Assembly: GCF_030253575.1 (NCBI RefSeq)
Contig: NC_080561.1
Coordinates: forward strand, 34,433,564-34,497,563
Reading direction: 5' to 3'
Source: Rhododendron vialii
Lineage: Eukaryota > Streptophyta > Magnoliopsida > Ericales > Ericaceae
Length of the DNA stretch: 64,000 nucleotides
Every line of letters begins with the position of its first letter. Within the stretch, counting starts at the first letter, position 1. The notes under the pieces are model-generated. The model had not been told where the DNA came from, searched no databases, and saw only the letters and a program-made list of their open reading frames with translations. Below, piece after piece: positions 3,550 to 63,651 of this stretch. The translations under genes were made by a program, and so were the position numbers.

Positions 3550-3696
3550 TGCGTGCAAGAAAATGTTGAAATGTGACATTAGCCACCGCGTGATTCAGTC
3601 AACCCACATTGCAAGAATCCCTTGGGCGGCTCAAGAGCAACATTCTCGAAAATTTCTCAAACCCTCAAAACTTTTGACACAATCACTGCACCATCT

Positions 3697-4893: not shown

Positions 4894-4904
4894 AGGGAAT
4901 AAAG

Positions 4905-4910
4905 GTAAGT
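4905..4910 (+). other. Conserved 5' splice site of a 3' UTR intron (unit B)
   Basis: GTAAGT lies 11 bp after the F-box B stop codon, preceded by AAAG. The same donor stands in the same place in units C, D and E, so an intron in the 3' UTR is ancestral to the cluster. I could not identify the acceptor. Confidence 0.65.
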
Positions 4911-16202: not shown

Positions 16203-17513
16203 ATGGGTCTAATTGGACGAATCTGTTGCTTCTCCCTCATGCGTTCGCCATCCAAATCCACCAATCACCCAGAGGATTTTCAGCCGGAAATCATTGGCGC
16301 GGATGAAGAAGATTTTCAGCCACCGCCTGAAATCACGATGGGCGCCGGAGAAGAAGAGTCTCAGCCAGTACCACTGCCGAACCTGCCGCCGGAAATCACG
16401 TTCGAGATACTGTCCAGGCTAACCGTCAAGTCGCTGCTGCGATTGAGGTGCGTTTGCAAGTCATGGCGTTCTTTGATTTCTGGACGCGAATTCGCGAAAA
16501 CCCATCTCAGTCTAGCATCATCTATTGACACCGATTACGCCCACCATAGACTCTTGATAACCAGTCCATTTGCCGTTGTCATGTCGTGTTCTCTTTACTC
16601 TATTTTGGACGAGCATTCTGATACTGATGTTGTTGAACTTGATTACCCTCTGTATGGTGACGGCTGTGGTGGACATCTAGGAGTAAGGGTCTTAGGATGT
16701 TGTGATGGGTTAGTGTGCGTCGAAACTAAAAGTACATTATGCTTATGGAACCCGTCAACTAGGAAATCCAAGAGATTGCCTAGTGTTAATCTGCCGCACG
16801 GTCATGGAGTAGTCTATGGGTTTGGTTATGACTCCTCTATTGATGATTACAAAGTGGTGGGATTCCTTTATGGGCATAGTGGTATTGATTTTGAAGTCAA
16901 AGTGTATACGTTGAGGACTGATTCGTGGAGAAGGATTGGAGACTTTCCTTATGGTGATCTTCCTTATCGACATAGTTCAGGGGTATTTGTCAACGCGGCC
17001 CTCCATTGGAATGTGGGCGGGGAGCCCAATGGGATTATTGTTTCTCTTGATTTGGCGAAGGAGACCTATGGAGAGATTTTGAAACCTGAGTATCGAGATG
17101 GTCGTTTGTATGAGACATTGTGTGATTTCAATGGATGCCTGTGTGAACTCTATGACTACCGCATTTGTGCTCATGTGTGGGTGATGAAGGAATATGGAAT
17201 TAGAGATTCTTGGACCAAGTTGGCCGTGGTACCTTATGTGACTAGAGTATCGAATTTACAATATACCATGCCATTTTCCATTTTTAAGAATGGTGAAGTT
17301 TTATTGTATACCCGTAAGCATTTAGTTCGCTACAATCCAAAAGATGGCACATTTATCTATCCTACGTGTCCTATTGATTTAGCGTCTTCTATTTTGCATC
17401 CCTACATTGAGAGCCTAGTCTCGGTTGACATGGATGCTGACAAAGGGGTTCCATGTGCACCAATACTAAAGGGAATAAAGGTAAGTTTAGATTGTTTGAT
17501 TATGCCTTACTAG
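16203..17513 (+). CDS. F-box protein D (F-box + FBA type 1) with altered C-terminus
   Basis: The frame opens at ATG with MGLIGRICC, matching copy C. An acidic insert of about 40 residues follows, containing a duplicated EDFQP..EI segment. The F-box (LPNLPPEITFEILSRLTV, CKSWRSLISG) comes next, then the F-box-associated domain with GCCDGLVC, LWNPSTRKSKRLP, YGFGYDSSIDDYKVV, VYTLRTDSWRRIG and AHVWVMKEYGIRDSW. Compared with B and C, two bases are missing near 17453. The usual WQHxY ending is replaced by about 17 unrelated residues, and the frame runs through the conserved splice donor at 17481. The protein is otherwise complete and could act as an SCF substrate adaptor. If the intron is spliced, the C-terminus will differ. 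Confidence 0.8.
   Translation: MGLIGRICCFSLMRSPSKSTNHPEDFQPEIIGADEEDFQPPPEITMGAGEEESQPVPLPNLPPEITFEILSRLTVKSLLRLRCVCKSWRSLISGREFAKTHLSLASSIDTDYAHHRLLITSPFAVVMSCSLYSILDEHSDTDVVELDYPLYGDGCGGHLGVRVLGCCDGLVCVETKSTLCLWNPSTRKSKRLPSVNLPHGHGVVYGFGYDSSIDDYKVVGFLYGHSGIDFEVKVYTLRTDSWRRIGDFPYGDLPYRHSSGVFVNAALHWNVGGEPNGIIVSLDLAKETYGEILKPEYRDGRLYETLCDFNGCLCELYDYRICAHVWVMKEYGIRDSWTKLAVVPYVTRVSNLQYTMPFSIFKNGEVLLYTRKHLVRYNPKDGTFIYPTCPIDLASSILHPYIESLVSVDMDADKGVPCAPILKGIKVSLDCLIMPY
17481..17486 (+). other. Conserved splice donor, now inside the reading frame (unit D)
   Basis: GTAAGT stands where the 3' UTR donor of units B, C and E lies. The 2-bp deletion upstream moved the stop codon beyond it, so here it interrupts the open frame. 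Confidence 0.6.
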
Positions 17514-28026: not shown

Positions 28027-28044
28027 ACTAATGCCTACCCCCCC

Positions 28045-28079
<35 letters not shown>
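28027..28079 (+). repeat. Poly-C tract
   Basis: An almost pure C run of about 50 bp. Its mirror is the G run at 30065-30092 in the opposite terminal arm. Confidence 0.95.

Positions 28080-30063: not shown

Positions 30064-30092
<29 letters not shown>
30063..30092 (+). repeat. Poly-G tract
   Basis: A G run of about 28 bp at the right end of the Mutator-like element, the inverse of the C run at the left end. Confidence 0.95.
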
Positions 30093-30618: not shown

Positions 30619-30762
30619 AATAATCTCTCGTGCAGTGGAAATGTGGAATTCTGTTCGTCCTTCTCATTCGTTCAACGCTTCCAGCCCTAACCCTTATTGA
30701 AGCTTCCTTGTTTACTCTTTAAACCCAACCACGAAGACACAGACCCTATCACAGAACCATTT

Positions 30763-32149
30763 ATGGCGACTGAAAGCGACTCCACTTGTGGAGAATCCGA
30801 AAATGCCAATCAGACACCTCCAAGATGAGTTCGGGCCGAATCTCCCGCCCGAACTCTTCGATGCCATCCTGTCGAGGCTCCCAGTCGAGTCTCTTCTTCG
30901 CTTCAGGTGCGTTTGCAAGTTCTGGCGTTCTTTGATTTCTCATCCCAAATTCGTGAAAACCCATCTCAGTCCAGCATCTATCAACAATGATTATACCCAC
31001 CATAGACTCCTTATAAGACGTGACTATCACACTTATGATGTGAAGTCGTGCTCTCTATACGTTGTTTTGCATGAGCATTCTTATAATGCTGTTGAGCTTG
31101 ATTGCCCTATTAAAATACCTCATCGCTATTGGTTTGGGGATCTATTTGTTGGTTGCCGGGATGGATTAGTGTGCATAGCAATCGAGAGGGAAGTATATAT
31201 ATGGAACCCGTCTACTGGGAAATCCAAGAGCTTGCCGAGTGCTTGTGCCATTACTTGGCGAGGTATGGGTTTGGGTATGATGACACTATTGATGATTACA
31301 AGGTGGTTGGGTTCTTTAGAGATGTTAGTAAAGGTCGTTATGAGGTTGACGTGAAGGTGTATTTGTTGGTTGCCGGGATGGATTAGTGTGCATAGCAATC
31401 GAGAGGGAAGCATACATATGGAACCCGTCTACTAGGAAATCCAAGAGCTTGCCGAGTGCTCGTGCCATTACTTGGCGAGGTATGGGTTTGGGTATGATGA
31501 CACTATTGATGATTACAAGGTGGTTGGGTTCTTTAGAGATGTTAGTAAAGGTCGTTATGAGGTTGATGTGAAGGTGTATACATTGAGGTCGGATTCGTGG
31601 AAGAGGATTGGAGGCTTTCTTCATCATCTTTCTACTTTGGATGGTTTAGGGACATTTGTGAACGGGGCCCTCCATTGGATTGTGAGGATGAAGTCCAACG
31701 TGATTATTGTTTCTCTTGATTTTGCGAAGGAGACGTTTGCAGAGGTTTTGCAACCTAATTATCTAGATGGTCGTTGGTATGAAACATTGTTTGTTTTAAA
31801 TGGATGCTTGTGTATACTCTGTGGCTACAATGTGTGTGCTGATATATGGGTGATGAAACAATTTGGTATTATAGAGTCTTGGACCAACTTGGTTATGATA
31901 CCTAGGGTGGCACATCAATCTGGTTATTTGTATTCTGCACCATTGTGCATTTTGAAGAATGGTGAAATTTTACTGAAGATTGATTCACATTTAGTTTGGT
32001 ACAATCCCAAAGATGGTACATTTAATTATCCTACGATTCATAATTGTTCACCATGTTTTAGTGCGAATTCCTACGTTGAGAACCTAGTTTTGCCTTGCAT
32101 GGACGCTGACAGTGGGGTTCAGTTGCAACACCGATACCGAAGGGATTAA
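30763..32149 (+). pseudogene. F-box pseudogene E (F-box + FBA type 1)
   Basis: The ancestral ATG at 30763 opens a frame that ends in TGA within about 22 codons. The F-box frame instead opens at ATG 30803 and shows LPPELFDAILSRLPVESLL and CKFWRSLIS. The F-box-associated domain runs to FVGCRDGLVC and IWNPSTGKSK, then slips frame near 31255 and stops at 31352. The same frame becomes coding again after a 217-bp tandem duplication (RYGFGYDDTIDDYKVV, VYTLRSDSWKRIG, GALHWI, ADIWVMKQFG) and ends past the usual stop with three extra codons. It is most likely dead. Its 3' flank is replaced by a Ty1-copia fragment from about 32215. Confidence 0.85.
31145..31578 (+). repeat. 217-bp tandem duplication within F-box E
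   Basis: Starting at TTTGTTGGTTGCCGGG, 31145-31361 is repeated at 31362-31578 with about half a dozen mismatches. The length is 3n+1, so the copy alters the frame. The duplicated part covers the middle of the F-box-associated domain. Confidence 0.92.
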
Positions 32150-39340: not shown

Positions 39341-40728
39341 AACATTGATTGCAAAAGAGTAAACTAGATAGAGTGCTCACTAACCTTGCTTGGTTGGATA
39401 TGTTCCCTAATGCTGAAACTTGTTTTCTTGCTCCTTGGGTTTCAGACCATTGCCTTATCTCTGTGGCTATGGTTTCTCCCAATGGCAGAAGGAAGCCTCT
39501 TAAAATTTTCAACTTCTGGTTGCAACATCCTGATTTCGGTCAGATTTTGAATAATTCTTGGTGTAATCCTGTGGAAGGGGGGCCTATGTTTGCTCTCTTC
39601 TCCAAGCTCAGAAGATTAAAGAGTGTTTTGAGATAGCTGAACCTGAAGTGCTACTCTAACATCAGTAAAAGGGTTGTGGAAGCTAAGGTTGAGTTATGTA
39701 CTGTGCAGGAAAGATTGTTTGCCTCTCCCACTGATGACACCTTATGCACACAGGAAAAGGAATTAGTTTCCAAGTATATGGAGTTAAGATACGCAGAAGA
39801 GGCTTTTGTTAAACAATGTTCCAGGATCAAATGGTTAGCTTTAGGAGATAACAATACTAGTTTTTTCCACCAAAAAGTTTGTGCTCACAGAGCTAGGAAC
39901 ACAATCTTGAGTTTTCAAAATGGTGAAAGCCTACTACTAGAAGATCCTATGGCTATTAGATCTGAAATTTTGGGTTACTTTGAAGGGTTGCGTGGTACCC
40001 CTTTTAGCAATAGAGTTGATGCTAAGCTCCAGCTTCAACATGCTATCCTTTCTAAAGTTTCTGATCCTCAGAAAGCAATGTTGATTGCTCCTGTTTCTGA
40101 GGCTAAGATCAAGAAGGCTTTGTGGTCAATTAATGGGGATAAGTCCCCAGGCCCGGATGGTTATAACTCCCTCTTTTTTCAGAACAACTGGCAAGTGGTG
40201 GGTGCTAATTTGATTACAGTTGTTCAGTCTTTTTTTGTACCTAGTGTCATGCCCCAAGCTTGGAATCCTACAGCCATTTCTCTTATTCCTAAGGTCAATT
40301 CCCCTACCTCTATTAAAGATTATAGGCCTATTTCTTGCTGTAATGTAGTGTATAAATGCATTACCAAGGTGTTGGCTAACAGATTGCAACCTCTCTATCC
40401 TAGTCTTATCAATCAATCACAGTCTGCTTTTGTCAAGAACAGATCTATAGTTGATAATATCCTCCTAATGTAAGAACTGGTTAGGGGTTATCATAGGGAT
40501 GTTGGTGAGCCGAGAAGTGCTATTAAGATGGACTTGATGAAGGCTTACGATTTAGTGGACTGATCTTTCCTCTTTGACATTATGCAGCTAATGGGCTTTC
40601 CTTTTGCATTCATTAAATCGGTCAAAAGTTGTGCTTGTTCGGCTAGATATTCTGTTGTCATCAATGGGACTCTGGAAGGTTATTTTCAGGGCAAGAGAGG
40701 TTTAAGACAAGGTGATCCTTTGTCTCCC
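39341..40728 (+). mobile_element. L1 LINE, left part (EN end to RT)
   Basis: The insertion starts after a 16-bp target duplication AACATTGATTGCAAAA (39341-39356, repeated at 53615-53630) and is 5'-truncated inside the endonuclease (VSDHCLI motif at about 39445). It continues with SRIKWLALGDNNTSFFH and RT motifs GDKSPGPDGYN, KDYRPISCCNVVYK, FVKNRSIVDNILL and GLRQGDPLSP. Frame stops at 39634 (TAG), 40471 (TAA) and 40559 (TGA) make it inactive. The frame is cut at 40728, inside the GDPLSP block, by the gag-only retrotransposon. Confidence 0.92.
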
Positions 40729-42362: not shown

Positions 42363-42612
42363 TGTCTTATTATAGCTTATTTGGAGGTTCGACAAACCAT
42401 TTTAAGTATTCCACTTTATTTTACTTTGCGCAATTCCTACTTAATCTAGCAGAGACCTCTAACCGATCATCTTATCAAACTTGAGGTGTAACGAAGCCAG
42501 ATTAAGTATCGATTGCCTTTTCTTTCTGTTGTCCATATAACGTGGTGGTGGCTTAACCCCACAGAACTGTTTTGAGAGAGGTGGCGGCATAGCCCTCTCG
42601 CCTATTTACTCT

Positions 42613-43755
42613 ATGTCTTATCTATCTAATAGAATGGTGGCGGCAAATGGGGAAATAGTCCCCATGACTATGCGGGAGTACCTTTATCCCAATCAAATTT
42701 TTACACCCTCTTGCATAGTCACCCTTTCTGCCAATGTTTTAAGTGTTAATTCGAGCATGCTTCAAGTGTTGCCCCATTTTCATGGCTTAGCCTCTGAAAA
42801 TCCATGTCCGCACATCATAGAACTCGAGGAGCTTTGCATGAACGATAAAGAGGTCTTATTTAAGATATTTCCATCATCTTTGAAAGACATGGCTAAGAGT
42901 TGGTTTCATTCCTTGAACTCAAGTTTAATACTTACTTGGCAAGATATGGAAGAGCAATATTTCAATAAGTTTTCCCCAATGCATGAGACTCATATGCTGC
43001 TACGTCAAATCGTAAATTTTTATCAATTTGATGAAGAGTCTTTTGCATGTTATTGGTGGCAGTTTAGATATCCTGTACTCTATTGGTCGCAGCATAGCTG
43101 CGAAACAAGGCACCTTATTCCCATTTTCTATAAGAGTTTAAATTCTACAACACGTTAGCTTGTAGAACATATGGTTGATGGTGCATTTTTGGATAAAATC
43201 GTTAATGAAAGTTGGGATTACTTTGATCAATTGGCTGAAAATTCTGAATCTTGGGTTTATGAAGTCAAAGTTGCAGATGCCAACTTAAATGTTGAGAAAG
43301 AGGAAATAGAGCCGCTTATCATTATTGAAGAAGTTGGTTTAGAGTTGAACAAACCCTCAAAGTTAGGATGCCGTGATGAGTTTAATGTCCAATGTTCTCC
43401 TCATGAGAATTCTGTAGATGCTGTCGGCACTCCTGTTGAGTCTTCACCATTCCAAGATTTTGTGGGAGTGGAACTAATTGATTTTCTAGCTGTTGATGAC
43501 TTTGATTTGGGTTACCATCCTTACATTGTAGATTTTGTCAACAGTGTAAAAATCAATCTAGTTTGGAATGCGCACTTGGTTGAACATAAATGTATGAAAC
43601 GAATTCGACAATTGCTTTACTCGAAGTATCTATTTTTGTGGCATGGTCGGATTCAATTTTTGAAGCAGAGTGTAGAGTGCAGTGCTATGTTCATTTTATT
43701 AGCTCTCATTGGCATGATAAATGTTCGGAGCCCACGTTTGCCTAACTATACATAA
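42613..43755 (+). pseudogene. gag-like frame with one amber stop
   Basis: An ATG opens a 181-codon frame with the retrotransposon gag core (LKDMAKSWFHSLNSS, LTWQDMEEQYFNKFSP, then the LRQIVNFYQFDEES region). A single TAG at 43156 interrupts it, and the same frame resumes and runs to 43755 with an acidic linker. Plant Ty3-type gags show this domain order. There is no zinc knuckle and no protease. I see a CAG-to-TAG change as the simplest explanation of the stop, which is inference. Confidence 0.8.
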
Positions 43756-50120: not shown

Positions 50121-51729
50121 TGATGAGCACCCAATATTGTAGATATTTGGTGCGACTAGTCCCGTTTTATGTTGTTTTAACTTGCATTTATTTAGCTTTT
50201 ATTGCGATATTGCACGTAAGGTAGGTTTTTGTGTATTTCAGGTTAAACGTGCTAATAAGGCGGTTATGAATGCCAAGGAATGCTCTAGATGCAACCAAGT
50301 GCTCAAGGCCATGTGCCACCCCGTTGGGGTGCCCGAAAAGTCATGAAGAGATGGTTTGGAGGTTGGTTGGATCGCCCAAGGGTCAAGGGAATTGAAGGAG
50401 AAGTGAGGATTTTACCAAACCAACTCATTTTCCGACTAGCTGAGGGTAGAATTGTCATATCTTTTTATGTACAAAGTACTTTTGATCCAAACCACTTGGG
50501 TTAGAAAGTAGACTCATCTAGATTTCCAACGGTCCAAAGAACACCCAAATCCGAGTTCGGGAGTGTCCGGAGTGAGCCCTTGAAGTTTTCGAAAAAATCT
50601 GTCCAGTTGGTACCGATACCTCAAAAATAAGGTATCGGTACCTTGATGCTCCAAGTGAAGACAGGTTGTTTGGTACCGATACCTCAAAAATAAGGTACCG
50701 GTACCAATGCCCTTCGACCAGCACTTTATGCTGAATGGTTCAACCTTCCATTTATGGAAAGTTTCCACTTTTGGATTGATTTTGGGATATTTTGGGGGCC
50801 TTTTTGTCCATTGTAAGGTTGATTTTATAAGCCCTATAAATAGGCTTGTATGCCATTTATGGAAGGATGGCCATTAGTTAGTTTTTAGGCCTAAGTTTCT
50901 TTCTTGCTTTCCTAGGAACTCCATTGTTGTTCTTAAGCTTTTCAAGTTATTTCCTTCAAGAACTCAAGTAAGTTTAAGTGTTTTGATGTTTTCTCATGTA
51001 TTAATGTTGTAGCTACTTGTTAGATCTTCTCATAAATCTAGTTTATTTTCATTTTTATCGGTGAATCATATTTTCCATGGTTAACTCTTTTTCTAGTCTT
51101 TTTGCTATGTGTGAGTAGTATATAGGTTTGGTCATGGGGTGAGTTCACTCTATGATTTAGTTGTTCAAATGGTTTCTCTTAACCTTTAGCTTAATTTCAA
51201 GGTTTTTGAATGAATTAAACCCATGATGTTTAGTTTTGATCATGGGGTTGGTGGCTTCTTTGATCAATGAAGTTTATCGTCTTGTGCTACGAGCTTGATA
51301 ATCCTATGCGTGCGAACGATTCTTTTTCGTCTCTCACTTACGTTAAATGAGTTCAATTTGAATCAGAGCCTTGAGTTAAGTTATAAGTAGTCTTCAGCTT
51401 TTAATTCTTCTAGTGGAATTCGAACGGTTTCAGTCCACTCTTGAGTTAGATGAAGAAACCGTTTGATGGCTAAGTTGTGGGTAAATCAATCCCTTTGACT
51501 TGACCATCTCTAATCTAGTTTAATTCCAAGTTTAAATTTCGTCATTCAAATCGAATACCAAAGTTGGCCGATTGAACACCACAACTCTCTACGCAACATC
51601 TAATCCGAATTAGCTATAGAGATTATCTCTGTGGGAACGATTTCGGTCTTACCGGTTATTATGCTTTCAACGACCTAGCCCTACGCTTGGGGTGTGAACC
51701 TTTCTAAGAGGTTAGGTTGCGGCGAAGCA
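50121..51729 (+). repeat. 3' LTR of the gag-only element
   Basis: Second copy of the 1.6-kb LTR with TATAAATA at 50835-50842. It ends GCGAAGCA and is followed by the target duplication CTCCC. Confidence 0.95.
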
Positions 51730-53630
51730 CTCCCTATCTTTTCCTCTTTGTTATGGAGGCATTTACAGCTCTTCTTCGTTCTAGAGTGGATATGGGTCCT
51801 TTCAGTTTTCATCCTAAACGCAGAAGTATAGGCCTGACTCACTTGGTGTTTGCTGATGATCTATTCATCCTGTGTGGTGCCTCTCAGGACTCTTTCAGTC
51901 TTATTAATCAATTGTTGACAAATTTTCATTCTTTTTCTGGTCTCAAACCTAACATGCAAAAGAGCTCTGTTTTTTATGTTAGGGTTTTTGAGACTGTTAA
52001 GCTTACTTTGAGTAGTATTTTGCCCATTCCTGAAGCTCATCTCCTTGTAAAGTACCTTGGTGTTTCTCTTATATCTACTCGTTTAAAGGCTGCTGACTGC
52101 TTGATTCTTAAGGAGAAAATTTTGAAAAGGATTCAGGGTTGGTCAAATAGGCCGGTTTCATATAGAGGTAGAGCACAGCTAATTCAGTTAGTGCTCTTTT
52201 CTGTGCAAGTCTACTGGAGCTCCATCTTTGTTATTCCTAGCAAAACCATCAAAGAAATTGAGAGTACTTTGATGGCTTTCCTTTGGTCAAGTTTAGAGAT
52301 GAAATCCTATGCTGCTAAAGTCCAATGGTACCATGTTTGTAGCCCTAAGGAGGAGGGTGGTCTTAGCTTTAGGAGGATAAAGGAATGGAATAAAGCCACA
52401 ATGCTTCGACACCTTTGGGCCATTTGTAATAAAGCTGACACTCTTTGGGTAAAATGGATTCATAATTATATTATAAAAGGACAATGTTTTTGGTCCATGG
52501 ACATACCAAGTGATGCCTCTTGGACAATGAGAAAGGTGTTGAACCTCCGGAGTTTGGGTCAATCCCTCATTAAATACCAAGTTGGGAATGGTCAGAATAC
52601 TCACTTATGGTTGGATAATTGGCATCCTCTGGGTCCTCTTTTTAAAAGATTTGGTGAGAGTGTTGTGTACAATCTTGGCAAGTCTTTGCTTTCAAAGGTG
52701 TCCTTTATTATTCACAATGGTGCTTGGAGATGGCCTAGGCAAAGAAATAGGGTTACTCAGTTTATAGTAGTTCACACCCCCGTAGATTCTCAGCCAAACT
52801 GCTTACATGAAGATTCAGTCGTGTGGCTCCCTCATCCTAGTGGCTTTTCAGTATTTTCTGCATAGGAAGCTATCAGGGTGAAACTTCCAGTTCAAGATTG
52901 GGCTCATGTGGTTTGGTATAAGAAGAATATCCCTAAGTGGTCATTTATTTTGTGGTTAGCTGTCTAACAAAAGTTAAACACTAGAGATAGACTTTTGAGG
53001 TGGGGAATGAATGTAGAAGGTGACTGCACCTTTTGTACCAATGGCCAAGAAACCCACCATCGCCTCTTTTTTCAGTGTCCTTTGTCTCTCTGTGTGTGGG
53101 ATAGCATGTGGAGAAGGTCTTCAAGTGATCGAATGCCCTCTACCTTGCCTGAAGTCATTGCTTGGTATATCCAGCAAGTGAAAGGAACAAGTTTCAGAAG
53201 TTTGCTTTTGAGGAATGTTTTAGCTGCAACTGTGTATAATCTTTGGATGGAAAGGAACCAACGGGTTTTCAATCAAAATGCCTCAACTCAAGATCAGATT
53301 ATACTTTGGACTATTTCTTGTGTTAAAGAATCTTTGTGTTTGAAAAGGGGAGTGGATAAGATACAACTAAATAGAGCTCTTTGCAATAGTTGGGGACTCA
53401 CGGACAAGATTTTTGGCCCTTCGCACTAGTAGCTTTGGAGCTGGAAATTTGGAATTGGATGTATAGAATTCTTTCTAGTTTTTTTATTCTTGCTCATTTC
53501 AGTTGGCATTAGTTTTCAGATGTATAGGTAGGTGCCTTGTTCTTTACGGGGGAATGCCCCTTTGAGTTTGTAGTTGGGTTTGAGCTTTTAATAGAAAGTA
53601 CTTATCAAAAAAAAAACATTGATTGCAAAA
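51730..53630 (+). mobile_element. L1 LINE, right part (RT catalytic end to poly-A)
   Basis: The RT frame resumes exactly after the inserted element with YLFLFVMEAF, then the catalytic LVFADDLF (about 51842), the SGLKPNMQKSS and VKYLGVSL blocks, a long connector and the zinc-binding end (RDRLLRWGMNVEGDCTFC..ETHHRLFFQCP) followed by VYNLWMERNQRVFNQ. TAG at 52863 and a TAA near 52965 break the frame. A 3' UTR of about 180 bp ends in an A run, then the 16-bp target duplication at 53615-53630. Confidence 0.92.
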
Positions 53631-54381: not shown

Positions 54382-55368
54382 ACAAACATAGTATATTCGA
54401 TTAAGAAAAGAAAGTTTTTTCTTCTATTGGATGACAAACACAGCCGACAACAAGAGAATCTGAGTAATGTATTCCAATAGCATCTATTAATGTATTCCTC
54501 TTCCTTTACACAGTTACACACAGCACTTACACTGTACACAAATGACAAACCACAGTTTTTTTTCCCCCAGCAATACACAGTGCACAACTTACACTGTACA
54601 CAGAGAGAGAGACCTTGGTTTAATCATTGATTTGAGTTTCCTCGAGAAATCTGGGTAGATTGCGGGTTGGGCAAATCGGTTGCCGGTTGGTGATTGCTGA
54701 TTGGTGAGGGAACCGGCCGGCGAGGCGAGATACACTGGTGACGACAAGGTGAATTCTCCATCATTTATGACTCGTGAGCGAAAGGGGCTGTGGGCATGCG
54801 TGCCCCTTTTTCTTCCCTAGGAAGGGATTCCGTTCCCTTCCTAAAAGAGAAAAGTGCCGGTTCGCGGGAGCGCCTAAGCTGGACGTCGAGCGCTCGCAAA
54901 ATACAGAGTCGCCACTCGGGTTTGAAGGTCCGACACCCAAGGAACCGTATTTCGAAGCACTCGTCGCGCTGTTTGATTTGAAAAAAAGTTTAAGGAACCA
55001 GCCCGTCATAACCATATCTGGGTTCGGGAGCCAGGTTACGAGAGTGGAAGGGTTTTATGGCACCCCTCTCGACCAATCCGGAGATCGGTCTCTACTTAGG
55101 CACTTGCGAAAAAAAGAGTTTATTTGCGGTTCTGTTATATTAATCAATTTTAAGCCATTTAGGGCAGGGGAACAGTTAATCGGGGATTTAATACTGTAAC
55201 ACGTTTGCAAGATGTGATAGATATGGCATGGATGGGCGAGATAACAAATAAAAAAAATGGAATAAAATTCAAAATGTTGATCAAGCATCAAGACAGCGTT
55301 GTGTATGATTTTGGCACGAACAAACAACCAACTTGCATGCATGAATCAATCTGCATGCAAGAAAACCA
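54382..55368. other. Transition region; retroelement-like leader
   Basis: 54382-54740 holds repeated CACAGT and TTACACTGTACACA phrases and no gene. From 54770 the GC content rises. The frame 54774-55199 (PKEPYFEALVALFDLKK, RVEGFYGTPLDQSGD) with the phrase GAGTCGCCACTCGGG resembles sequence that recurs around large plant retroelements, in my recollection. I cannot place it in a named domain. Confidence 0.35.
55332..55361. repeat. Inverted repeat CTTGCATGCA .. TGCATGCAAG
   Basis: Perfect 10-bp inverted arms with a 10-bp loop, placed 7 bp before the first TCGCGCGA site. The arms contain the CATGCA core of RY-type elements. Confidence 0.8.
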
Positions 55369-55397
55369 TCGCGCGACAATCCTATACTCTCGCGCGA
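55369..55397. promoter_or_regulatory. TCGCGCGA pair 1 (21-bp spacing)
   Basis: Exact TCGCGCGA at 55369-55376 and 55390-55397, start-to-start 21 bp, with a spacer of unrelated sequence. See findings. Confidence 0.7.
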
Positions 55398-55622
55398 GTA
55401 TTGATGCCTCACCCACAGTTTGAATGTTATTCCCTTCTGGGCTCTGGAAGGACCAGTGCACACCCAGGTGCAAACCAAGCAATGTATATGTACTTGAAAG
55501 CAAATAATATTACAACAGGCAGTAATAATTTTGAAATACAACCCCTAAACAGTGGGGGTGATTAATCAGAGGCCAAGACCAAGTTGCCCATGCAAGGGCA
55601 ATCTCTGGAAATCAACGTACCA

Positions 55623-55651
55623 TCGCGCGACAGAGTGAAATACTCGCGCGA
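55623..55651. promoter_or_regulatory. TCGCGCGA pair 2 (21-bp spacing)
   Basis: Exact sites at 55623-55630 and 55644-55651; spacer CAGAGTGAAATAC. Confidence 0.7.
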
Positions 55652-55908
55652 GGTTGATGACTGGACTTCCAGGAATTGCTTTGCATGCCTGGGCTCTGAG
55701 ACATGTTCAGAAACAACCCAGGGGCATTCTTAAGTTAAATAACCTAGAGTTCTAAGTTAAATTACCAATTTTATCATGCAAGTCAGTGAGACAACTTTGA
55801 ATATATTTCACAGTAAAGAGGAAAAATCTAATAAACAAGCAGGATCAGGATCCCATCCCCACGAGGACCATGTCATGCTGACTAGAACAGTCGCGCTGAC
55901 TAGAACAG

Positions 55909-55938
55909 TCGCGCGACAGAGTGGGTCACTAGCGCGCG
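55909..55938. promoter_or_regulatory. TCGCGCGA pair 3, second site decayed
   Basis: Exact site at 55909-55916; the partner TAGCGCGCGG begins at 55930, again 21 bp on. The spacer shares CAGAGTG with pair 2. A truncated TCGCGCTG lies 18 bp upstream. Confidence 0.6.
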
Positions 55939-56466
55939 GGAGAGCTGGTCCGAGGTAACTTGTAACTTTGCTGGCCTTGGGGCCAGGACTGGTATTGATT
56001 ACCAGCATTGACCCTGCCAGCCCCCCTCAAAGACCAAAACAGTAAACAGTAAGGCTATACCTTTACTTGAGTGTCTTGAAAATTGCTTGAATAAGGTGGT
56101 GTAGATTGGAAAATGAGTGTGTGGGAATGGTTTGGAATGGAAGAAGTGCTTCGGGCTTATGTCTCCTTCTCTCTCTTTCACAATTTTTGGCAACCCTTTG
56201 GAAGATGGACCATGGGGGGTACTTATAGAAAGGGGAGGGATGTTGGTTGGTGGCAAAACAAGGCAATACAACCAGCCAACTGGTTGGTTGTAGTTACTTG
56301 GTGGAGAAGTGGGGTGCCAAAGATGATGGGAAAGTGGGGTAGAGGTGGTGCAAAGGGAGCCCCCCAGAATGCTGTTCAGTCGACACAACGGGTTTACATA
56401 GGCCTGTAGCCCCCTGATTATCACGCAACCCAACTGGAAATCGGTGAAAATGACAGGTGTCGACCA

Positions 56467-56495
56467 TCACGCGAGGGTCTGAATCCATCGCGCGA
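56467..56495. promoter_or_regulatory. TCGCGCGA pair 4, first site changed
   Basis: TCACGCGA at 56467 and exact TCGCGCGA at 56488-56495, 21 bp apart; both are followed by GGGTC. Confidence 0.65.
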
Positions 56496-56545
56496 GGGTC
56501 AACAGTCAAAACTTCGACATTGACCACCACCTGGCAAGTGAATTA

Positions 56546-56574
56546 TCGCGCGAGGGACCCAATAAATCGCGCGA
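56546..56574. promoter_or_regulatory. TCGCGCGA pair 5 (21-bp spacing)
   Basis: Exact sites at 56546-56553 and 56567-56574. Confidence 0.7.
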
Positions 56575-56918
56575 CGGTCGAACCTATGGTCTAGGTTCAG
56601 ATTCAAGGGTTTCAGGGCTAAGAACGGGTTCCACACACGACAAGCTCGAGCCATTTCATTTTCTCAAGACCATTTTCGACCTGATTCATCATCGGGGAAA
56701 TAAGAAACCGAAAAACGAAGTAAAGATGGGAAAGTCAGATTGGGGTGTCTACAGTAGTCCCTCTTTGACGGCACGCGGAGCACTATTGGCTGGTACGGGT
56801 AACGTCAAAGATTTCTAGACACCCATCTAATTTTACCCAAAAGCCAATCTAAACGAAAAATGCAAGCAAGTATATACAAATACCGTGCACCAAGGGATCA
56901 GAGAGTAGCTCAATCGCT

Positions 56919-57188
56919 GATTTGAATTCGGACGGATGGATCGTCACTGATTTGAAAGTGGACGGATGGATCGTCGCTGGTTTGAAATTGGACGGATGGA
57001 TCGTCGCTGATTTGAAATTGGACTGATGGATCGTCGCTGATTTGAAATTGGACTGATGGATCGTCGCTGATTTGAAATTGGACGGATGGATCGTCGCTGG
57101 TTTGAAATTGGATGGATGGATCGTCGCTGATTTGAAATTGGACGGATGGGTTGTCGCTGATTTGAAATTGGACGAATGGATCATCGCT
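56919..57188 (+). repeat. 30-bp minisatellite, nine units
   Basis: Nine head-to-tail 30-bp units of the form GATTTGAAATTGGACGGATG + GATCGTCGCT, with scattered substitutions and no indels. The unit is divisible by three, so both strands show open frames of repeated peptides, but neither has other coding signs. It lies between two TCGCGCGA clusters, 390 bp before the PMD gene. Confidence 0.95.
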
Positions 57189-57326
57189 GGGGAAATAAAG
57201 GACATCTCGAAGGGATCCTAAAATCAATTGCAAGGCTCGAGTAAGACTCCTGGGCCATCATTAAAGCGATACATATGATCGGGCCTGAACCAGAGGCTGA
57301 ACCTGGTCAACGGCCCAGTTTGACTA

Positions 57327-57376
57327 TCGCGCGATGAAGTCACACCATCGCGCGATGAAGTCACACCATCGCGCGA
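57327..57376. promoter_or_regulatory. TCGCGCGA triplet (21-bp period)
   Basis: Three exact sites at 57327, 57348 and 57369. Here the spacers are identical (TGAAGTCACACCA), so this cluster is a true 21-bp tandem repeat. It ends 198 bp before the PMD start codon. Confidence 0.75.
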
Positions 57377-57574
57377 TGGTTTTTTGTTAGGGCTTGGATC
57401 TGAAACCAGCCCAGACCCAGCCCATGGCAGCCTTCTTCCTTTTAAACGACGGGGACGTTCTGAAACCGCTCACAGTAGTTTCGAACTTTACCTAACTCCA
57501 TTCTCTCTCAAATTCCTCTTCCAAACCCTTGATTTTATTCCAAAACCAAGAAATCCATACGCGTACCAACATCC

Positions 57575-60500
57575 ATGGCAGACCACGGCGTCAACCGGGG
57601 CAGTGGAGAAGTAGTTGATCGTCTGGAGGACGAGGAAGGACCAATGGAGGTCGAAACAGAGGATCAAACGCCAGTAGGGGCTGTTGCAGATACCAGTGCA
57701 GAGGTAATGGGCGGCGGCGATGGCGAACAGGGTTGCATGCAGGAAACTAGTGGTGGCGTCGAGCATCGCGCGACAGAGCCAGACTATCGCGCGGAGGAAG
57801 TCGGGACCGTGAGGCCTGGAGTCGAGCAACTAGACCCGAGCGAGACCGTGAGTGGCTCGGTGGTGGTTGGTGGTAGTCCTGAGGGTGCAGGCAGTGGAGG
57901 CGCCGCGGGTGGCGGTGCCGGGCCGAGCGAGACTCCGCCGAGGGATCCGGCGAGAGGTAAGGGCATAGCAACCGAGGAGGAGGGTGCCACAGAGGTTCCT
58001 GAAGAGGAGGTACTGTTTCGGCCAGCAGCAACATCGTCGGGCCACAAACCAATCACGAGACAGGATCTCGCAGAGTTTCTGAGTGATGAGAGACTAGCCC
58101 GGCTCCTCGAGGAGGATCCCATGATTTGGGCTGCTGTTTTGGAGGCTCGAGAGGAGCGAGAGCGGGTGATAGCCGCGTCAGAGGTCGCTGCGAGGGCCGA
58201 GAGGGCTAGAGCAGCTGAGAAGGAGGCTCTGAGGGACGTAGAGACCGAGGAGAGGATTGGAGCCAGGGTACACGGGCCTAGGGTGACAGTGGTGTCTAAG
58301 GCGGAGAGTTTGACTCGTGCTCCGTTTTCAGCAGAAGGGTATAAGCCACCCGTTCCACACTTGTTCGAACCATCGGGTCTTGCAGCTTACAACCCACGGC
58401 AGGCGGAGTACGACCCCGAGCTCATTCTGAGAGACCCCGATACCCATATTTCAAGCAGCTGGGCTGAGGTAAACTTTTGAGAGTCCCTCATTTCCTTTTG
58501 TGATTGCAAATTTAAATACAATGTATGTGCTTAAATACCTAGAAGTGTAGGGTAATCGTTTGAAATATATTCGAATGGTGATACCATGGTTTCACGTTGA
58601 ATGCCATGTGTGAGACATAATAACTTGAACCAACCATCTACTGTTAGGTTACATTGATTACCTAGAACTTGAGGATGAAAACTTTACATACTGATATATC
58701 TCTTGTTGCTTATTTCTGTGTCTAATGCAGGAGAGAGCGAGACAGAGAGACATTCAAGGTTTTGGGGGCGCATGCAGCTCCTTGGCATTGTACCAGGGTT
58801 TACCTGAGAGGGTGAGGCAGTTGGTGGATGAGGCAGGCTTCGGGGAGTTCATACAGACCCTTTCCCCGGCCAGAAATGACCATGCTGTCCTGGTTGCACT
58901 TGCAGAGAGGTGGAGGGATACCACCAACACCTTCCACCTCTTGCTCGGGGAGATGACGGTGACGCCTACTGACTTTGCGGCGATCACCGGCTTAAGGGTT
59001 GGAGGTGATCCTATCCCGTTTGATTCAGGCATTCAGAAGGACGAGGCGGCCTTGGAATGGTTCTTGGGAGGGGTGCCCAAGGTTGAAGAGGGGATGGCGA
59101 GATATGGACAGTTTACCCGGTACCTCGCGAAGGAGGTGGCGACTGAGTAGGAGGCAGAACAAATGGCCCGGGCCTACCTGTTGTGTCTTTTCGGCGCTAC
59201 CCTATACCCGAATAGGCGTAGCAAGGTTCACCTATTGTACTTGCCTGCATTGAAGGATCTGAGGACAGCCTCAAGCTTTGACTGGGGAGGAGCTGCACTT
59301 GGCGCAGCTTATGGCTTTATGGGGGACTCGTCGAGGACAGAGATGAGCACTGCTGGGTACTGGCGGATTTGGGAGGTATGATCATAATAGAGTAAAGCAC
59401 ATTTCCAATGTACACTTATCTATTTGAGTATATAACCTGCTTAATCATATTCCTGCGCTGTACTAATGACTTGATCTCTTGATAACTGTGCAGCTCTGGG
59501 CCTATGAGGTTTTGAACATGTGTCGTCCAGTGACGAAGAGCCTAGACTTGGGGATCCTCCCACGTGCTTATATCTGGAGCAAGAAGAACATGGGAGAGAA
59601 GAGAGGGAAAGGTGACCTGAATGGCTTCAGGATATACCTAGACGAGCTCCGACCTTCACAGGTATGACATGACTTTACCAAACGGGAGTACGCATCCCTT
59701 TTTATTGCTTTAATGTTGTCGCTGACCGATACTTGCATTGCTTGCTTGTGCAGGTAGAGTGGGATCCTTGGAGGGTGGCAGAGCCAGAGCCTGAATACTT
59801 GGCCAAGAGCAGGGTCGTGACAGCGAGCAAAGTGCTGCTCGAGTCGGCATTTGGTTGGCAGTGGTACTTGGGTGACCGAGTGACACGCCAGTCACTTGGC
59901 TATGCAGGGTTCCAGGTGCCTGGACCGCTTCCACCACGGGCTTCACACACAGGGGAGTACGCGCTGGCCGAGCTAGAGATCTTCACACGGCCTGACACCG
60001 ACTTGACACGTTACTTGCGTCCTGGCATGGACTATGCGGTTTACCAGAGAGAGCGCTTGGCGGGGCCGCTGAGAGTGCGAGAGTTCAGGGAGGTCCGGAG
60101 TCAGGCTCGTGGACCCGCTGAGGAGAGGAAAGCCATTACCGTGAGGCAGAGTAGTGGCGAGAGTCGTGTGAGACGGGGTCCGAGTGGACCTGTGAGAGGT
60201 GGGCCACCAGAGTTGACGTGGCAGATAGCAGTGGTGGGCTCTCAGGGCAATCCAGCTGAGCTACACCTAGCCCCTGCCAGAGTTGAGCCAGCGCCCGTTA
60301 CTGTGTCGGTAAGACATTGTAGCCTTTATTATTGTACTTCCATAAAATCTTGAAACACTGCCCAATTGCTTATGTTCAAATTATTCTTGCAGGTGCCCAA
60401 TGAGTGGGTGAACGAGGCTGTTCGGCGTATGCTTGCACTAGAGAACATGATAAGGCGAGCGGCAAGTGACTTGCCTTTAGACTTGCGCTACCCACCACCG

Positions 60501-61100
60501 GCGGTTCAGAGACCTCAGGTATAACCTTCAAAACAAACGATACATTCCTGCATTCGATACTTGACATATGCATGCTTTGCTCGATACATAGTATTCCTTA
60601 ATTGCCATTGACTTCAAAATTGATCTTACCTGCTTACAAACATGCAATACATAGAATGTATACTAAATGTGCAAAAATTTATAATGCAGACACAGGGACG
60701 GGTGGCTCCTAGGAGGAAAAGCGCAAAAGAGCCTCCACAAAAGAAGCTAGCAACTAAGACTCCTGTTCCTCCACCTACTACTAGACCACAGACGCGGGGC
60801 ATACAGCCACCTGTTGCGAGTGAGGAGGCGGCCCGAGAGGCCGTGGCGCGCGCTGAGGAGAGGTATCAACTAAAAATGCGCCAACGGCCTTCGCAAGATG
60901 AGCCGGTCCGCAAGAAATGGCTGGTTCTGCCCGAGGATTCCGGGGAGGAAGGGGAAGAGGAGGAAAAAGGAGAATACGAGGAGGCGCCCGACAGCAGCGG
61001 TTCAGACGACTCAGCGGACGATCCTGGTTTTAGGCAGGATCCTAGAGAGAGGGACGACGACGATGACGACGAAGATAGTGATTGGTTCGGAGAAGACTGA
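57575..61100 (+). CDS. Plant mobile domain (PMD, MAIN-like) protein, six exons
   Basis: All introns are GT-AG in phase 0. Exons: 57575-58468, 58731-59375, 59494-59661, 59754-60308, 60393-60518, 60690-61100, giving 932 codons plus the stop. Exon 1 encodes an acidic, Gly/Pro-rich region. Exons 2-4 carry the PMD: AERWRDTTNTFHLLLGEMTV, TPTDFAAITGLRVGG, YLLCLFGATLYP and DWGGAALGAAYGFM, then LWAYEV and the VEWDPW / DRVTRQSLGYAGF blocks. Exon 6 has a basic PRRKSAKEPPQKK stretch and a very acidic tail. PMD proteins are nuclear and occur both as MAIN/MAIL genes and within Mutator and Ty3 transposons. One in-frame TAG (59148) breaks exon 2, within the PMD, so the allele may be inactive. A TCGCGCGA pair lies inside exon 1. 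Confidence 0.8.
57766..57794. promoter_or_regulatory. TCGCGCGA pair within PMD exon 1
   Basis: Exact site at 57766-57773 and TCGCGCGG at 57787, 21 bp apart, inside coding sequence (reading HRATEPDYRAE). The spacer begins CAGAG, as in pairs 2 and 3. Confidence 0.6.
59148..59150 (+). other. In-frame TAG in PMD exon 2
   Basis: GAG TAG GAG in an otherwise open 215-codon exon; PMD homology continues immediately after it. Confidence 0.85.
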
Positions 61101-62045
61101 GGGCTACTGAGAAACCTCATATCACTTTCCGCACTTTTGATTTTTGCTTTTGGGCCTGCGTGCCTGCGTAGATAGATCGAAGGTCGGAGTGCCTTAGTTG
61201 ATACTTGATACATGTTTTTGAGGCCTGCGTGCCCTTTGACTTGATGGGCGAGTGTGCCCGAGTTGACATGATGACTTTTGCGTGGGCGAAGTGCCGCACA
61301 CACAGTGGTTTACTTTGACACAGATAGATTATGGCTTAGCTATAAAATTTGCATTTTCGGTTTATTTCACTCTTATAATGAATTAGAGTAAATAAGCGTT
61401 TGCCACTAATACCATGCTTGCATTGATAATGTACTGAGACTGCTCACAAATACACGCATATGCACAGACAGAACTAGCTCAAAAGGAAAACAAGAATGTA
61501 CTTTAGGATACGGCTAGAATACGAGGATACAAGGGAATGAAACATCAGTCATTCACAAGTCAAAACTCAAAATACTCTATCTTGGATGAAAATGATGCTT
61601 CCGTAAAGTCATGTATATGTGAAATAACCCACGAGAGCTGACGGAATTGAGAAACGCATCCCAAAACGCAAACTTAACCGAAAATGTTACAAAAGACACA
61701 AAACGGACACGAGATGGAAAAACATGACTCTATATGTCCCGGACTGAAACCGACACCTCCGTATAGTCATATTAGGTCACAATGACCTGTACGGCCTGAG
61801 TGAAAAGAGCTTGAACTTTTGAACTGAGTTTCGAATCCCCGAAATGGTTATTTGGACTTGAAACAGGCCATCGAGGGTACAAAAACTTCGTTAAACGCAA
61901 TTTCTCAAATCCGACGATTGGATACGGTCACATATGCTCATAGTGACTTGCTAGAACCATAAAAGTTGCAAAAGAACCCTTGGAACAGGAAGCGACCAAA
62001 ATTGGACAGTAGCTGGTGTAATCTGTCAATTTGCAGGCTGAACCA
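61101..62045. other. 3' flank of the PMD gene, no gene seen
   Basis: 61101-61320 is probably 3' UTR. Between about 61585 and 61800 two loose copies of a CTTCCGTAAAGTCATG / CCTCCGTATAGTCATA phrase are about 180 bp apart, resembling retroelement U3 repeats. Otherwise nothing is recognised. Confidence 0.4.
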
Positions 62046-62121
62046 TCACGCGAGGGAGTGAGTGTATCGCGCAATGGAGTGATGCTGCTCACTCGCGCGA
62101 GGGAATGAGAGCATCGCGCGA
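62046..62121. promoter_or_regulatory. Four TCGCGCGA-type sites upstream of the DUF7745-like gene
   Basis: TCACGCGA 62046, TCGCGCAA 62067, TCGCGCGA 62093 and TCGCGCGA 62114. The spacings are 21, 26 and 21 bp. The cluster ends about 270 bp before the start codon. Confidence 0.7.
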
Positions 62122-62321
62122 TGGTTGGACCATACCAGGCCACCTTTATTTGACCGTTTCAGATTTTTAGGATAACCGAGCCTTGTCATCAACCTTTAAC
62201 TGCTCAGAGTGCTTCGGGGGGGGTGGGGAGGAAGTGCAGAGATGCCTTCACTTTGGAGAAGAGGATGCCACGTTGTATGGATATTTGCACTGGGAAAGGA
62301 CAACACTTTATGTATTCTGTC

Positions 62322-62327
62322 TATAAA
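62322..62327 (+). promoter_or_regulatory. Probable TATA box of the DUF7745-like gene
   Basis: CTATAAAGAGG lies 70 bp before the ATG at 62392, leaving room for a short 5' UTR. Confidence 0.5.
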
Positions 62328-62391: not shown

Positions 62392-63651
62392 ATGGCAAAT
62401 AACCTTCCGGTCTTGATTAGCCCATGGCTCGCAGCCTTTGTTGCTGGAGATTGGCTGTCATTCAGGTTTCACGGGCTGGCCGCCTTTCGTTTTCTCCGCA
62501 ATGTGAGGGTTCGTTCTGAATTTCTGAGGCCAACCCTACAATTCTGGGACCCGGAGGTTCACGTGTTCAGGTTTGGGGTTAATGAGCTGTGCCCAACCGT
62601 TGAGGAATTCCAAGCATACCTCCAAGGAGTCGCCTCAAGCGTGATTGTCGTGCCGCCTTATAGGAAAAGCATGCCAAAGCTCCTACAGTCAAGTCTTGAC
62701 ATTACCCGGGGAGCGGCCGAAAGTTTACTAACCGGAGGGCAAATCAACATCATATGCCTAATGGAGTGGTATGGGCCAGAGGGGGACGTAGAGGACATAG
62801 CCGCGCAGGCTCGGTGTCGATTTGCTCTGGCAATCAGCGTGCTAGCCGCTTATTTACTGGTATCTCCGAATGGGCAAGTTAACCCTATGCTGGTGAGCGT
62901 TGCAGCTCAAATGGGCGCCCGAAGAAATGTGGGGCCACTGGTTCTGGCAGAGATACTCATAGGTTTGGATTTGGTTTCTACCGGCCAAACAGACGTGTTC
63001 GGTGGTAGCCCACTCCTACTGCAGGTCGACTCTCACTCAGCTCACCTTTTTCCAGTTTTCTCACGTTCTGTTTTTTTGCCTCATCTCTCGGCTAAGGTTA
63101 TATGGAAGCTTCTTACTTGTCTTTCCTCTCAAGCTTTATATGACTTCTCACTTGTTTTTCCACTCATGCAGCTTTGGCTGTCTGACAAATTGGGATTGCT
63201 TATAGCACCGAAAGCAAATTGGCCTCATCTGCCCGGTCGAATGCATTAGCGGGGCATGATCTACCCAGAAATGTCTGCGCATCAATGGTACATATTCATG
63301 AGAGAAATGCTGCCGAATGAAATCACATGGCGGCATGAAGCCTTAAACATTCCAGACATGGCCCTGAGTTCTGCAGATTTCGAGAGAGTAGTGATCGCTG
63401 GACTGACCGTTTTCACATTCTATATCCTTGGACGCATCCTTCGTCAGTTAGGAATGAGCCAAGGGCTCCATCGAGCTGGGATTGAAGACTTCCAAATCCC
63501 TGCTTTCACTGCCCGAAATTTGAGAGGATATGAGCACAATTAGGGCCTGAGGCAACTCGGGGGAGCTGACCCAGACTTCAGCACAGAACTTATGCACGGA
63601 TATCAAGTATGGCTAAGAAGGGAAGTTGCAAGCAGGCAAAACAACAGCTGA
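62392..63651 (+). pseudogene. DUF7745-like protein gene, two exons, two in-frame TAGs
   Basis: Exon 1 is 62392-63024 and exon 2 starts at 63172 after a GT-AG intron in phase 0 with a pyrimidine-rich acceptor. Residues 5-85 read ISPWLAAFVAGDWLS, RPTLQFWDPEVHVFRFG and ELCPTVEEFQAYLQG, the layout of the plant-specific DUF7745 family often seen next to retroelements; this assignment is from memory. Later blocks include VNPMLVSVAAQMG and LVLAEILIGLD, then LWLSDKLGLL across the splice. TAG codons at 63247 and 63541 interrupt exon 2 before a TGA at 63649. The function of the family is unknown. It follows the PMD gene in the same orientation, with the same upstream sites. Confidence 0.6.

What the first reader, a model, noticed from the sequence alone, without database searches (positions are those of the whole stretch)
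55369..62121. TCGCGCGA palindromes in pairs spaced exactly 21 bp, around and inside two adjacent genes
I count 14 exact TCGCGCGA octamers and about seven one- or two-base variants between 55.3 and 62.2 kb, and none elsewhere in the window by eye (the nearest is TCGCGCGC near 20384). They fall into nine clusters. In every pair, and twice in the triplet, start-to-start spacing is exactly 21 bp (8-bp site plus 13-bp spacer). The spacers mostly differ in sequence, so the sites and the period are conserved rather than the whole repeat. 21 bp is two turns of B-DNA, placing both sites on one face, as expected for a dimeric or tandem binder. 21 is also seven codons and the length of a plant small RNA. 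Six clusters lie before the PMD gene, one inside its first exon and two before the DUF7745-like gene, tying the genes together. The octamer has three CpGs and does not fit the usual CAMTA CGCG box (A/C/G before, C/G/T after).
Basis: partly seen in the sequence, partly recalled or inferred. Interest (0 to 1): 0.88.

Follow-up and report, generated by a model that had tools for sequence, protein, structure and literature searches.

The report
Retrotransposon with own paired switch sites
The repeated TCGCGCGA pairs are conserved control sites of a large jumping element of a Rhododendron-like plant, and a sister element carries a different palindrome in matching places at the same 21-base spacing, which suggests that each family carries its own matching lock and key.

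Summary
Observation confirmed: 14 exact TCGCGCGA, all at 55369-62121, nine clusters, 21-bp spacing. All nine belong to one Tat/Ogre-type LTR retrotransposon lying antisense (3' LTR 54789-56753, TSD GGGGC, about 20.6 kb; 5' LTR outside the window). Five pairs lie in the LTR; the others lie before and inside the antisense PMD gene and before the antisense DUF7745-like gene.

Genome-wide there are 2971 exact pairs at 21 bp. In 30 LTRs fetched without using the motif, octamers hardly change on internal branches of the tree (13 changes, 115 on tips), whereas spacers change freely (84 and 94). The sites are held by selection while the element replicates and decay after insertion. Both antisense proteins are under purifying selection.

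Strongest result: a diverged sister family (PMD 39-77% identical by exon) lacks TCGCGCGA but has another palindrome, GGCGTRCGCC, at matching offsets in its LTR, before its PMD gene and in PMD exon 1, in pairs at 21 bp. Genome-wide: 217/225 exact pairs at that spacing, 17/16 over the 30 next longer spacings.

Best reading: an element-encoded, co-evolving protein/target system, analogous to VANC/VANDAL anti-silencing but in an LTR retrotransposon. Binding is untested.

The parts
54784..54788 (.). Target-site duplication GGGGC (left copy; the right copy follows the other LTR at about C5:34508913)
   Evidence: Alignment of the two LTR edges
54789..56753 (-). 3' LTR of the element (1965 bp), lying antisense; reads TGTGGG...TCTACA on the + strand
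   Evidence: 95.6% identical over 1986 aligned positions to the right LTR at C5:34506946-34508912
55369..55397 (.). LTR cluster 1: TCGCGCGA-13-TCGCGCGA
55623..55651 (.). LTR cluster 2: TCGCGCGA-13-TCGCGCGA
55909..55937 (.). LTR cluster 3: TCGCGCGA-13-TAGCGCGC
56467..56495 (.). LTR cluster 4: TCACGCGA-13-TCGCGCGA; gains and loses whole 21-bp units between copies
56546..56574 (.). LTR cluster 5: TCGCGCGA-13-TCGCGCGA
56222..56228 (-). Probable LTR TATA box in element sense (CTATAAG), 239-346 bp downstream of clusters 4 and 5
   Evidence: CTATAA in 28 of 30 LTRs; promoter function inferred
56754..56768 (-). Probable polypurine tract next to the 3' LTR
   Evidence: read from sequence; inferred
56914..57189 (.). 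30-bp tandem array, 9.2 copies; longer in some other copies
57327..57376 (.). Triplet of TCGCGCGA at 21-bp steps upstream of the PMD gene
57575..61100 (+). PMD gene, antisense to pol, several exons (borders estimated); one in-frame stop at 59148
   Evidence: Pfam PF10536 58.7 bits on 58695-59147 and 28.8 bits (below the cut-off of 34.9) on 59151-59378; purifying selection
57766..57794 (.). Pair TCGCGCGA-13-TCGCGCGG inside PMD exon 1; each site holds an Arg (CGC) and an Ala (GCG) codon
60164..60171 (.). Decayed single site TCGTGTGA inside the PMD gene
   Evidence: TCGCGCGA in L007, L010, L013; not in L017, L019, L020
62046..62074 (.). Pair TCACGCGA-13-TCGCGCAA upstream of the DUF7745-like gene
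62093..62121 (.). Pair TCGCGCGA-13-TCGCGCGA upstream of the DUF7745-like gene
62321..62327 (+). Probable TATA box of the DUF7745-like gene
   Evidence: CTATAAA in 7 of 7 copies aligned, window included
62392..63651 (+). DUF7745-like gene (PMD relative), antisense to pol; in-frame stops at 63247 and 63541 compared with the open copy L010
   Evidence: PF24924 21.4 bits on 62392-63027, below the cut-off of 26; 39.3 bits in L010; frames

Best explanation
A dimer or two adjacent subunits would read a palindrome on one face of DNA and again two turns (21 bp) away. Bound sites in the LTR, before both antisense genes and in PMD exon 1 would keep the element's promoters open or counter silencing of its own family only, as VANC does for VANDAL elements. 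Shown: the element's structure, the sites, their spacing, selection on sites and on both proteins, and a sister family with another palindrome at matching places. Inferred: that the element's own protein binds, and the direction of the effect (activation or anti-silencing).
For: Element: LTRs, TSD, pol order RT-RH-aRH-INT. Family: 2971 exact pairs. Of the 150 family-A PMD hits, the 10 that lie on C1 below 28.87 Mb (where pair lists were in view) all have an A pair within 5 kb (nearest 1.0-3.3 kb; 0.15 of 10 expected for random places); of all 18 on C1, none has a B pair within 5 kb (two of the 10 lie in one duplicated stretch). Selection, in 30 LTRs fetched with a motif-free query: octamer columns 13 internal / 115 tip changes, spacers 84/94, other LTR 1169/1401, other mostly-CpG columns 63/139 (Fisher p 1e-12, 4e-17, 7e-6). 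Pair span 29 bp in 140 of 142 clusters present of 150, against 5343 of 8415 cells for control 29-bp windows. Proteins, window against each copy: dN/dS 0.108-0.167 for PMD in six of seven loci and 0.275 in the diverged L015; 0.079-0.207 for the DUF7745-like gene in seven loci, six copies. Exon-1 site codons: 15 of 15 four-fold sites unchanged against 295 of 481 elsewhere in exon 1 (p 0.0016). Switch: sister family B in L015 has seven GGCGTACGCC-like pairs (up to two mismatches), all at 21 bp, none in 100 shuffles, and no TCGCGCGA within one mismatch. The prediction written held genome-wide: 217/225 exact pairs at spacer 11, control 0, against 17/16 over spacers 12-41. It held in part at the DUF7745 gene: two exact sites 346 and 280 bp upstream of the ATG.
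Against: No binding, expression or methylation data. In the passages read, no PMD or DUF7745 protein is shown to bind DNA. No related solved structure: none at E up to 1 for the DUF7745-type alignment, two chance-level hits for a 139-aa PMD exon; structure prediction never ran. Family B rests on one element read in detail, one further LTR (L052) and pattern counts; spacers 0-10 of the B palindrome were not searched. The predicted 21-bp pair before the family-B DUF7745 gene is absent at two mismatches; partners with three mismatches stand at 21 and 20 bp (read). No TATA box conserved before the PMD gene was seen. A family-A LTR lies next to the family-B element in L015. The octamer also occurs in other arrays, and not all pairs were assigned to a family.
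Confidence: 0.66

Rival explanations
1. A host transcription factor or CpG-reading chromatin protein binds the pairs, and the element exploits it as its LTR enhancer.
For: Conserved sites sit 239-346 bp upstream of the probable LTR TATA box, a usual enhancer place; related LTRs keep them.
Against: The sister family has another palindrome at all seven matching places in the stretch read, with the 21-bp step kept; a fixed host factor does not explain this. The base before the octamer is not T in 166 of 169 and the base after is not A in 168 of 169 exact octamers, against an E2F-like TTCGCGCGAA (motif recalled).
Confidence: 0.2
2. The sites are targets of host silencing (21-nt siRNA, RdDM or a repressor) rather than of the element's own factor.
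For: PMD genes of Camellia, also Ericales, produce 21-nt phasiRNAs (PMC10673657, passages); 21 bp equals a siRNA length.
Against: Within the 21-bp unit only the octamer is conserved, while siRNA pairing needs the whole stretch; an element would hardly keep a silencing target under purifying selection (inference).
Confidence: 0.06
3. The pairs act in the RNA or cDNA stage (packaging, dimerisation, strand transfer, integration) rather than as DNA-bound regulators.
For: Palindromes occur in the LTR and in internal RNA; constraint is seen on internal branches only.
Against: Sites sit at the 5' parts of both antisense genes and are spaced by two DNA turns; spacers show no excess of dyad symmetry, so no longer hairpin appears to be selected.
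Confidence: 0.06
4. Old 21-bp tandem repeats homogenised by slippage or conversion, with no function.
For: Cluster 4 gains and loses whole 21-bp units (L028, L047, L048 less one, L030 plus one); the triplet 57327-57376 has two identical spacers.
Against: Homogenisation would keep spacers too, yet spacers are the least conserved part (identity 0.683, octamers 0.879, other LTR 0.839 between elements), and without selection CpG octamers would decay fastest.
Confidence: 0.02

Closest known systems
VANC/VANDAL anti-silencing system of Arabidopsis (VANC21 with YAGTATTAY; VANC6 with AGTTGTCC and AGTTGTAC; PMC5735166 and PMC10398659, passages read)
   Same: Short motif at high density in the element's own family, with gain and loss of tandem units; related families with diverged proteins have different motifs.
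   Different: LTR retrotransposon, not a MULE; palindromes in fixed pairs two DNA turns apart; candidate reader is PMD or DUF7745-like, not VANC; binding and demethylation not shown; one pair lies in a coding exon.
Tat/Ogre and Retand LTR retrotransposons with extra ORFs (PMC6317226 passages and section 13; PMC11963269 abstract, passages and Discussion; PMC7264820 passages)
   Same: RT-RH-aRH-INT order, PMD extra ORF, large size, tandem arrays, antisense ORFs between pol and 3' LTR.
   Different: Conserved paired palindromic sites and a site switch between sister families were not mentioned in what was read.
MAIN/MAIL1/PP7L and the DOWN motif of Arabidopsis (PMC7156037, PMC9899485, PMC5418596, passages)
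   Same: PMD proteins tied to a short promoter motif and to transposon silencing.
   Different: DOWN reads CATGCAGTTT in the MORC1 promoter; not enriched in the window (3 hits within one mismatch, 6.55 expected); host genes, acting in silencing of transposons.
HTLV-1 Tax-responsive 21-bp repeats and antisense gene (21-bp repeats recalled; antisense genes named in PMC11963269 Discussion)
   Same: Retroelement LTR with 21-bp elements and accessory genes near the 3' LTR, one antisense.
   Different: No sequence relation tested; analogy only.

Membership tests
Tat/Ogre LTR retrotransposon | Two LTRs, TSD, PPT | tested here: met
   LTRs 95.6% identical, 5-bp TSD GGGGC; PPT read from sequence only
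Tat/Ogre LTR retrotransposon | aRH domain between RH and INT (Ogre and Retand clades, PMC6317226 section 13) | tested here: met
   RVT_1, RT_RNaseH, then RVT_3, Integrase_H2C2, rve on the minus strand of L005
Tat/Ogre LTR retrotransposon | PMD extra ORF (57% of Ogre elements) | tested here: met
   PF10536 58.7 bits
Tat/Ogre LTR retrotransposon | Placement in the Ogre clade rather than Retand by polyprotein phylogeny | not tested
   No tree made; no Transposase_28 hit in the pieces scanned
VANC-type anti-silencing system | Element protein binds the motif (ChIP, EMSA) | not testable with these tools
   -
VANC-type anti-silencing system | Protein causes loss of DNA methylation on its family | not testable with these tools
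   -
VANC-type anti-silencing system | Dense motif concentrated in non-coding DNA of its own family | tested here: inconclusive
   14 of 14 window octamers in the element, dense in 30 motif-free LTRs; but one pair is coding, other arrays carry the octamer and most of the 2971 pairs were not assigned
VANC-type anti-silencing system | Related families with diverged proteins carry different motifs | tested here: met
   Two families, A and B, B read in one element
VANC-type anti-silencing system | MULE-type (VANDAL) element | tested here: not met
   LTR retrotransposon; a VANC gene was not sought. It may work like VANC; it is not a VANDAL
   By inspection: the first CGCG of TCGCGCGA follows T, the second precedes A
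DOWN motif of PMD-C proteins | CATGCAGTTT | tested here: not met

The most novel reading that the evidence does not exclude
Gypsy-type PMD/DUF7745 proteins are sequence-specific DNA readers that co-evolve with paired palindromes carried by their own element: a retrotransposon lock-and-key whose specificity has switched at least once (between TCGCGCGA and GGCGTRCGCC) with the geometry fixed at two helical turns. This would give the antisense ORFs of Ogre-type elements their missing function and suggest that host MAIN/MAIL1 share a motif-reading module with them.
Probability: 0.5. Interest if true: 0.92.

Novelty: new variant of a known kind. Interest (0 to 1): 0.84.

Why it matters
The roles of antisense extra ORFs in plant LTR retrotransposons and of PMD proteins are open questions in the papers read (PMC11963269 Discussion; PMC7156037 and PMC9899485 passages). 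Here a candidate target is named to the base, with two versions in one genome, so a simple swap test (A and B proteins on A and B sites) can settle whether PMD or DUF7745-like proteins read DNA. If true, sequence-specific self-recognition by a selfish element is not peculiar to Arabidopsis VANDALs.

Tried and rejected
Considered and set aside: CAMTA box, E2F-like site, DOWN motif, small-RNA phase, long hairpins (81 unique spacers show fewer dyad matches than shuffled halves, 1.96 against 2.43 of 6), satellite DNA. A first conservation test used 10 LTRs chosen because they carry a pair (octamer 0.944, spacer 0.671, other 0.814 between elements); because of that bias it was redone on 30 motif-free LTRs, 24 of them taken as independent, where octamers score lower (0.879) but the contrast stays. 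Within four LTR pairs octamers decay faster than the rest (0.8935; spacer 0.941, other 0.947); two further pairs (L030/L035 and L037/L038, 34 and 55 kb apart) were left out of that count as not shown to be one element. Restricting to CpG-like columns weakens the per-site contrast (28 octamer sites mean 0.894, 40 others 0.784, p 0.014). In one search cluster 4 could not be scored in window coordinates, because the window copy has a 20-bp gap there. In one search pieces with under 40 codons were dropped and stop codons left out. L052, fetched with a DUF7745 relative, has two pairs 21 bp apart of an NCGCGCGA variant (some sites further changed) before its gene; L053 is unclear. The family-B PMD search did not complete. 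Paper searches: for the octamer (120 papers hold the string, 25 listings seen, none of them on this subject by title); for PMD, Ogre, Rhododendron, anti-silencing and motif terms (listings; nine papers then read as passages or single sections) showed no report of these sites.


Full report
What was checked. The window lies at C5:34433564-34497563 of a 532.6-Mb, 13-contig genome.

What it is. The pair pattern recurs 2971 times exactly. Fetched copies show the same string of clusters, and one has a second set of LTR clusters 19.3 kb away. Comparing the window with the DNA to its right gave two LTRs (54789-56753 and C5:34506946-34508912; 95.6% identical in the BLAST alignment, 97.5% with gaps left out), a 5-bp duplication GGGGC, and between them on the minus strand RT, RNase H, a second RNase H and integrase in that order. 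That order is a feature of the Ogre and Retand clades of the Tat group, and a PMD extra ORF is common in Ogre (PMC6317226, section 13). The LTR divergence means an insertion under 2 million years old at a rate of 1.3e-8 (rate recalled). In this copy both antisense genes have in-frame stops; the DUF7745-like gene is open in L010. Hence clusters 1-5 are in the LTR, the triplet stands before the PMD gene, one pair is in PMD exon 1, and two stand before the DUF7745-like gene.

More than chance, and selected. A motif-free 501-bp LTR query returned 44 places from 40 scored of 1794 first-look candidates; the first 30 were cut out and aligned. Of 300 octamer cells 291 are readable; 168 are exact and 265 within one mismatch. 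The 29-bp pair span is kept in 140 of the 142 clusters present (150 in all), against 5343 of 8415 cells in 305 control windows and 816 of 1602 in 59 control windows of low identity; the alignment is anchored by the octamers, which flatters this. In the 30 loci, 131 of 138 octamer distances up to 60 bp are 21 (up to one mismatch). On a tree made without octamers and spacers, octamer columns have 13 internal and 115 tip changes, spacers 84 and 94, other columns 1169 and 1401, other mostly-CpG columns 63 and 139. So octamers change on tips, where most change follows insertion, but barely along replicating lineages; columns and copies are not independent, so the p-values are a guide. The base before an exact octamer is T in 3 of 169, the base after is A in 1 of 169.

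The proteins are selected too. Codon comparison of window pieces with other copies gives dN/dS 0.108-0.167 for PMD in six loci and 0.275 in L015, and 0.079-0.207 for the DUF7745-like gene in seven loci from six copies. A PMD exon search scored the best 150 of 1378 candidates, all at least 92% identical. In exon 1 the site codons kept all 15 comparable four-fold positions in four copies, the rest of exon 1 295 of 481 in five; L017 gave no comparable site codon.

Promoters. In element sense a CTATAA box at 56228 is present in 28 of 30 LTRs, with clusters 4-5 239-346 bp upstream; the DUF7745-like gene has CTATAAA in 7 of 7 copies aligned. The PMD gene showed no conserved TATA box.

The switch. 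L015 holds a second, diverged element (LTR about 3700-5740) whose PMD pieces are 41, 64, 77, 46 and 54% identical to the window's; exon 5, in L051, 39%. That element shows no TCGCGCGA within one mismatch in L015 from 3691 on or in L051. A count of repeated words put ACGCCAGT on top, part of the palindrome TGGCGTRCGCCA. Within two mismatches GGCGTACGCC makes seven pairs at 21 bp, and one at 57, in L015 from 3691 on: five pairs in the LTR, one before PMD, one in PMD exon 1; none at 21 bp in 100 shuffles. LTR offsets are close to family A's: about +600, 863, 1136, 1749, 1827 against +580, 834, 1120, 1678, 1757 (left edge of the B LTR estimated from alignment), and its CTATAAATACCCCCC box lies 230 bp from cluster 4. 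The motif was found after looking, so a prediction was written before the tests. Genome-wide, spacer 11: 217 forward and 225 reverse, control 0. Spacers 12-41 together: 17 and 16; of the 25 distinct places printed there, 12 lie 40 or 42 bp apart and 12 lie 45 or 46 apart, as expected of two steps or of two neighbouring pairs. Spacers 0-10 were not searched. Before the family-B DUF7745 gene (59.8% identical to L010) two exact sites stand at -346 and -280; no 21-bp pair is there at two mismatches, while weaker partners (three mismatches, read by eye) stand 21 and 20 bp away; family A's first pair also starts at -346. A further B LTR in L052, fetched with a DUF7745 query, shows four pairs at 21 bp within two mismatches.

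Association. Of 150 PMD hits, 18 lie on C1. The 10 below 28.87 Mb, where pair lists were in view, all have an A pair within 5 kb (0.15 expected); none of the 18 has a B pair within 5 kb. The reverse test, with family-B PMD, did not complete.

Reading. The site differs throughout between two sister elements while place and period are the same. The simplest cause is a trans-acting reader that changed with its element, hence element-encoded; PMD and DUF7745-like are the two candidates, and the data do not separate them. VANC21 and VANC6 behave so (PMC5735166, PMC10398659, passages). Whether the effect is anti-silencing or plain activation is open; CpG-rich sites suggest methylation sensitivity (inference).

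Limits. Papers were read as passages or single sections only, as named with the calls.

Noticed in passing
L017, L018, L019, L020 (C1:20119194, C1:20126020, C2:22722537, C4:25046834, C5:26309026): Related elements carry TCGCGCGA at 19- and 20-bp steps mixed with 21-bp steps, mostly before the DUF7745-like gene (64 exact pairs with spacers 0-12 genome-wide).
   Followed up: partly
C1:8457672-8457777, C1:19370781-19370886, C1:23698165-23698270 and others: Arrays with 28- and 49-bp steps combine TCGCGCGA with another palindrome (GCGCCAGGGCGC-like); perhaps a third site type or a mixed array.
   Followed up: no
L052:3016-3085: A further DUF7745-type gene has NCGCGCGA variants in two pairs 21 bp apart upstream.
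   Followed up: partly
window 56914-57189: 30-bp tandem array between LTR and PMD gene, longer in other copies such as L007.
   Followed up: partly
window 55336-55362: RY-type words (CATGCATG, GCATGC) just beside LTR cluster 1.
   Followed up: no
window 3586-4893, 9778-11070, 16116-17513, 30704-32149: Several F-box and F-box-associated reading frames; a 217-bp tandem duplication (31143-31579) lies where the last one is broken in two.
   Followed up: partly
window 39640-40473, 51711-52865, 42544-43158: Fragments with reverse transcriptase (RVT_1, two places) and a retrotransposon gag.
   Followed up: no
window 28038-28079 and 30064-30092: Long C and G homopolymers.
   Followed up: no
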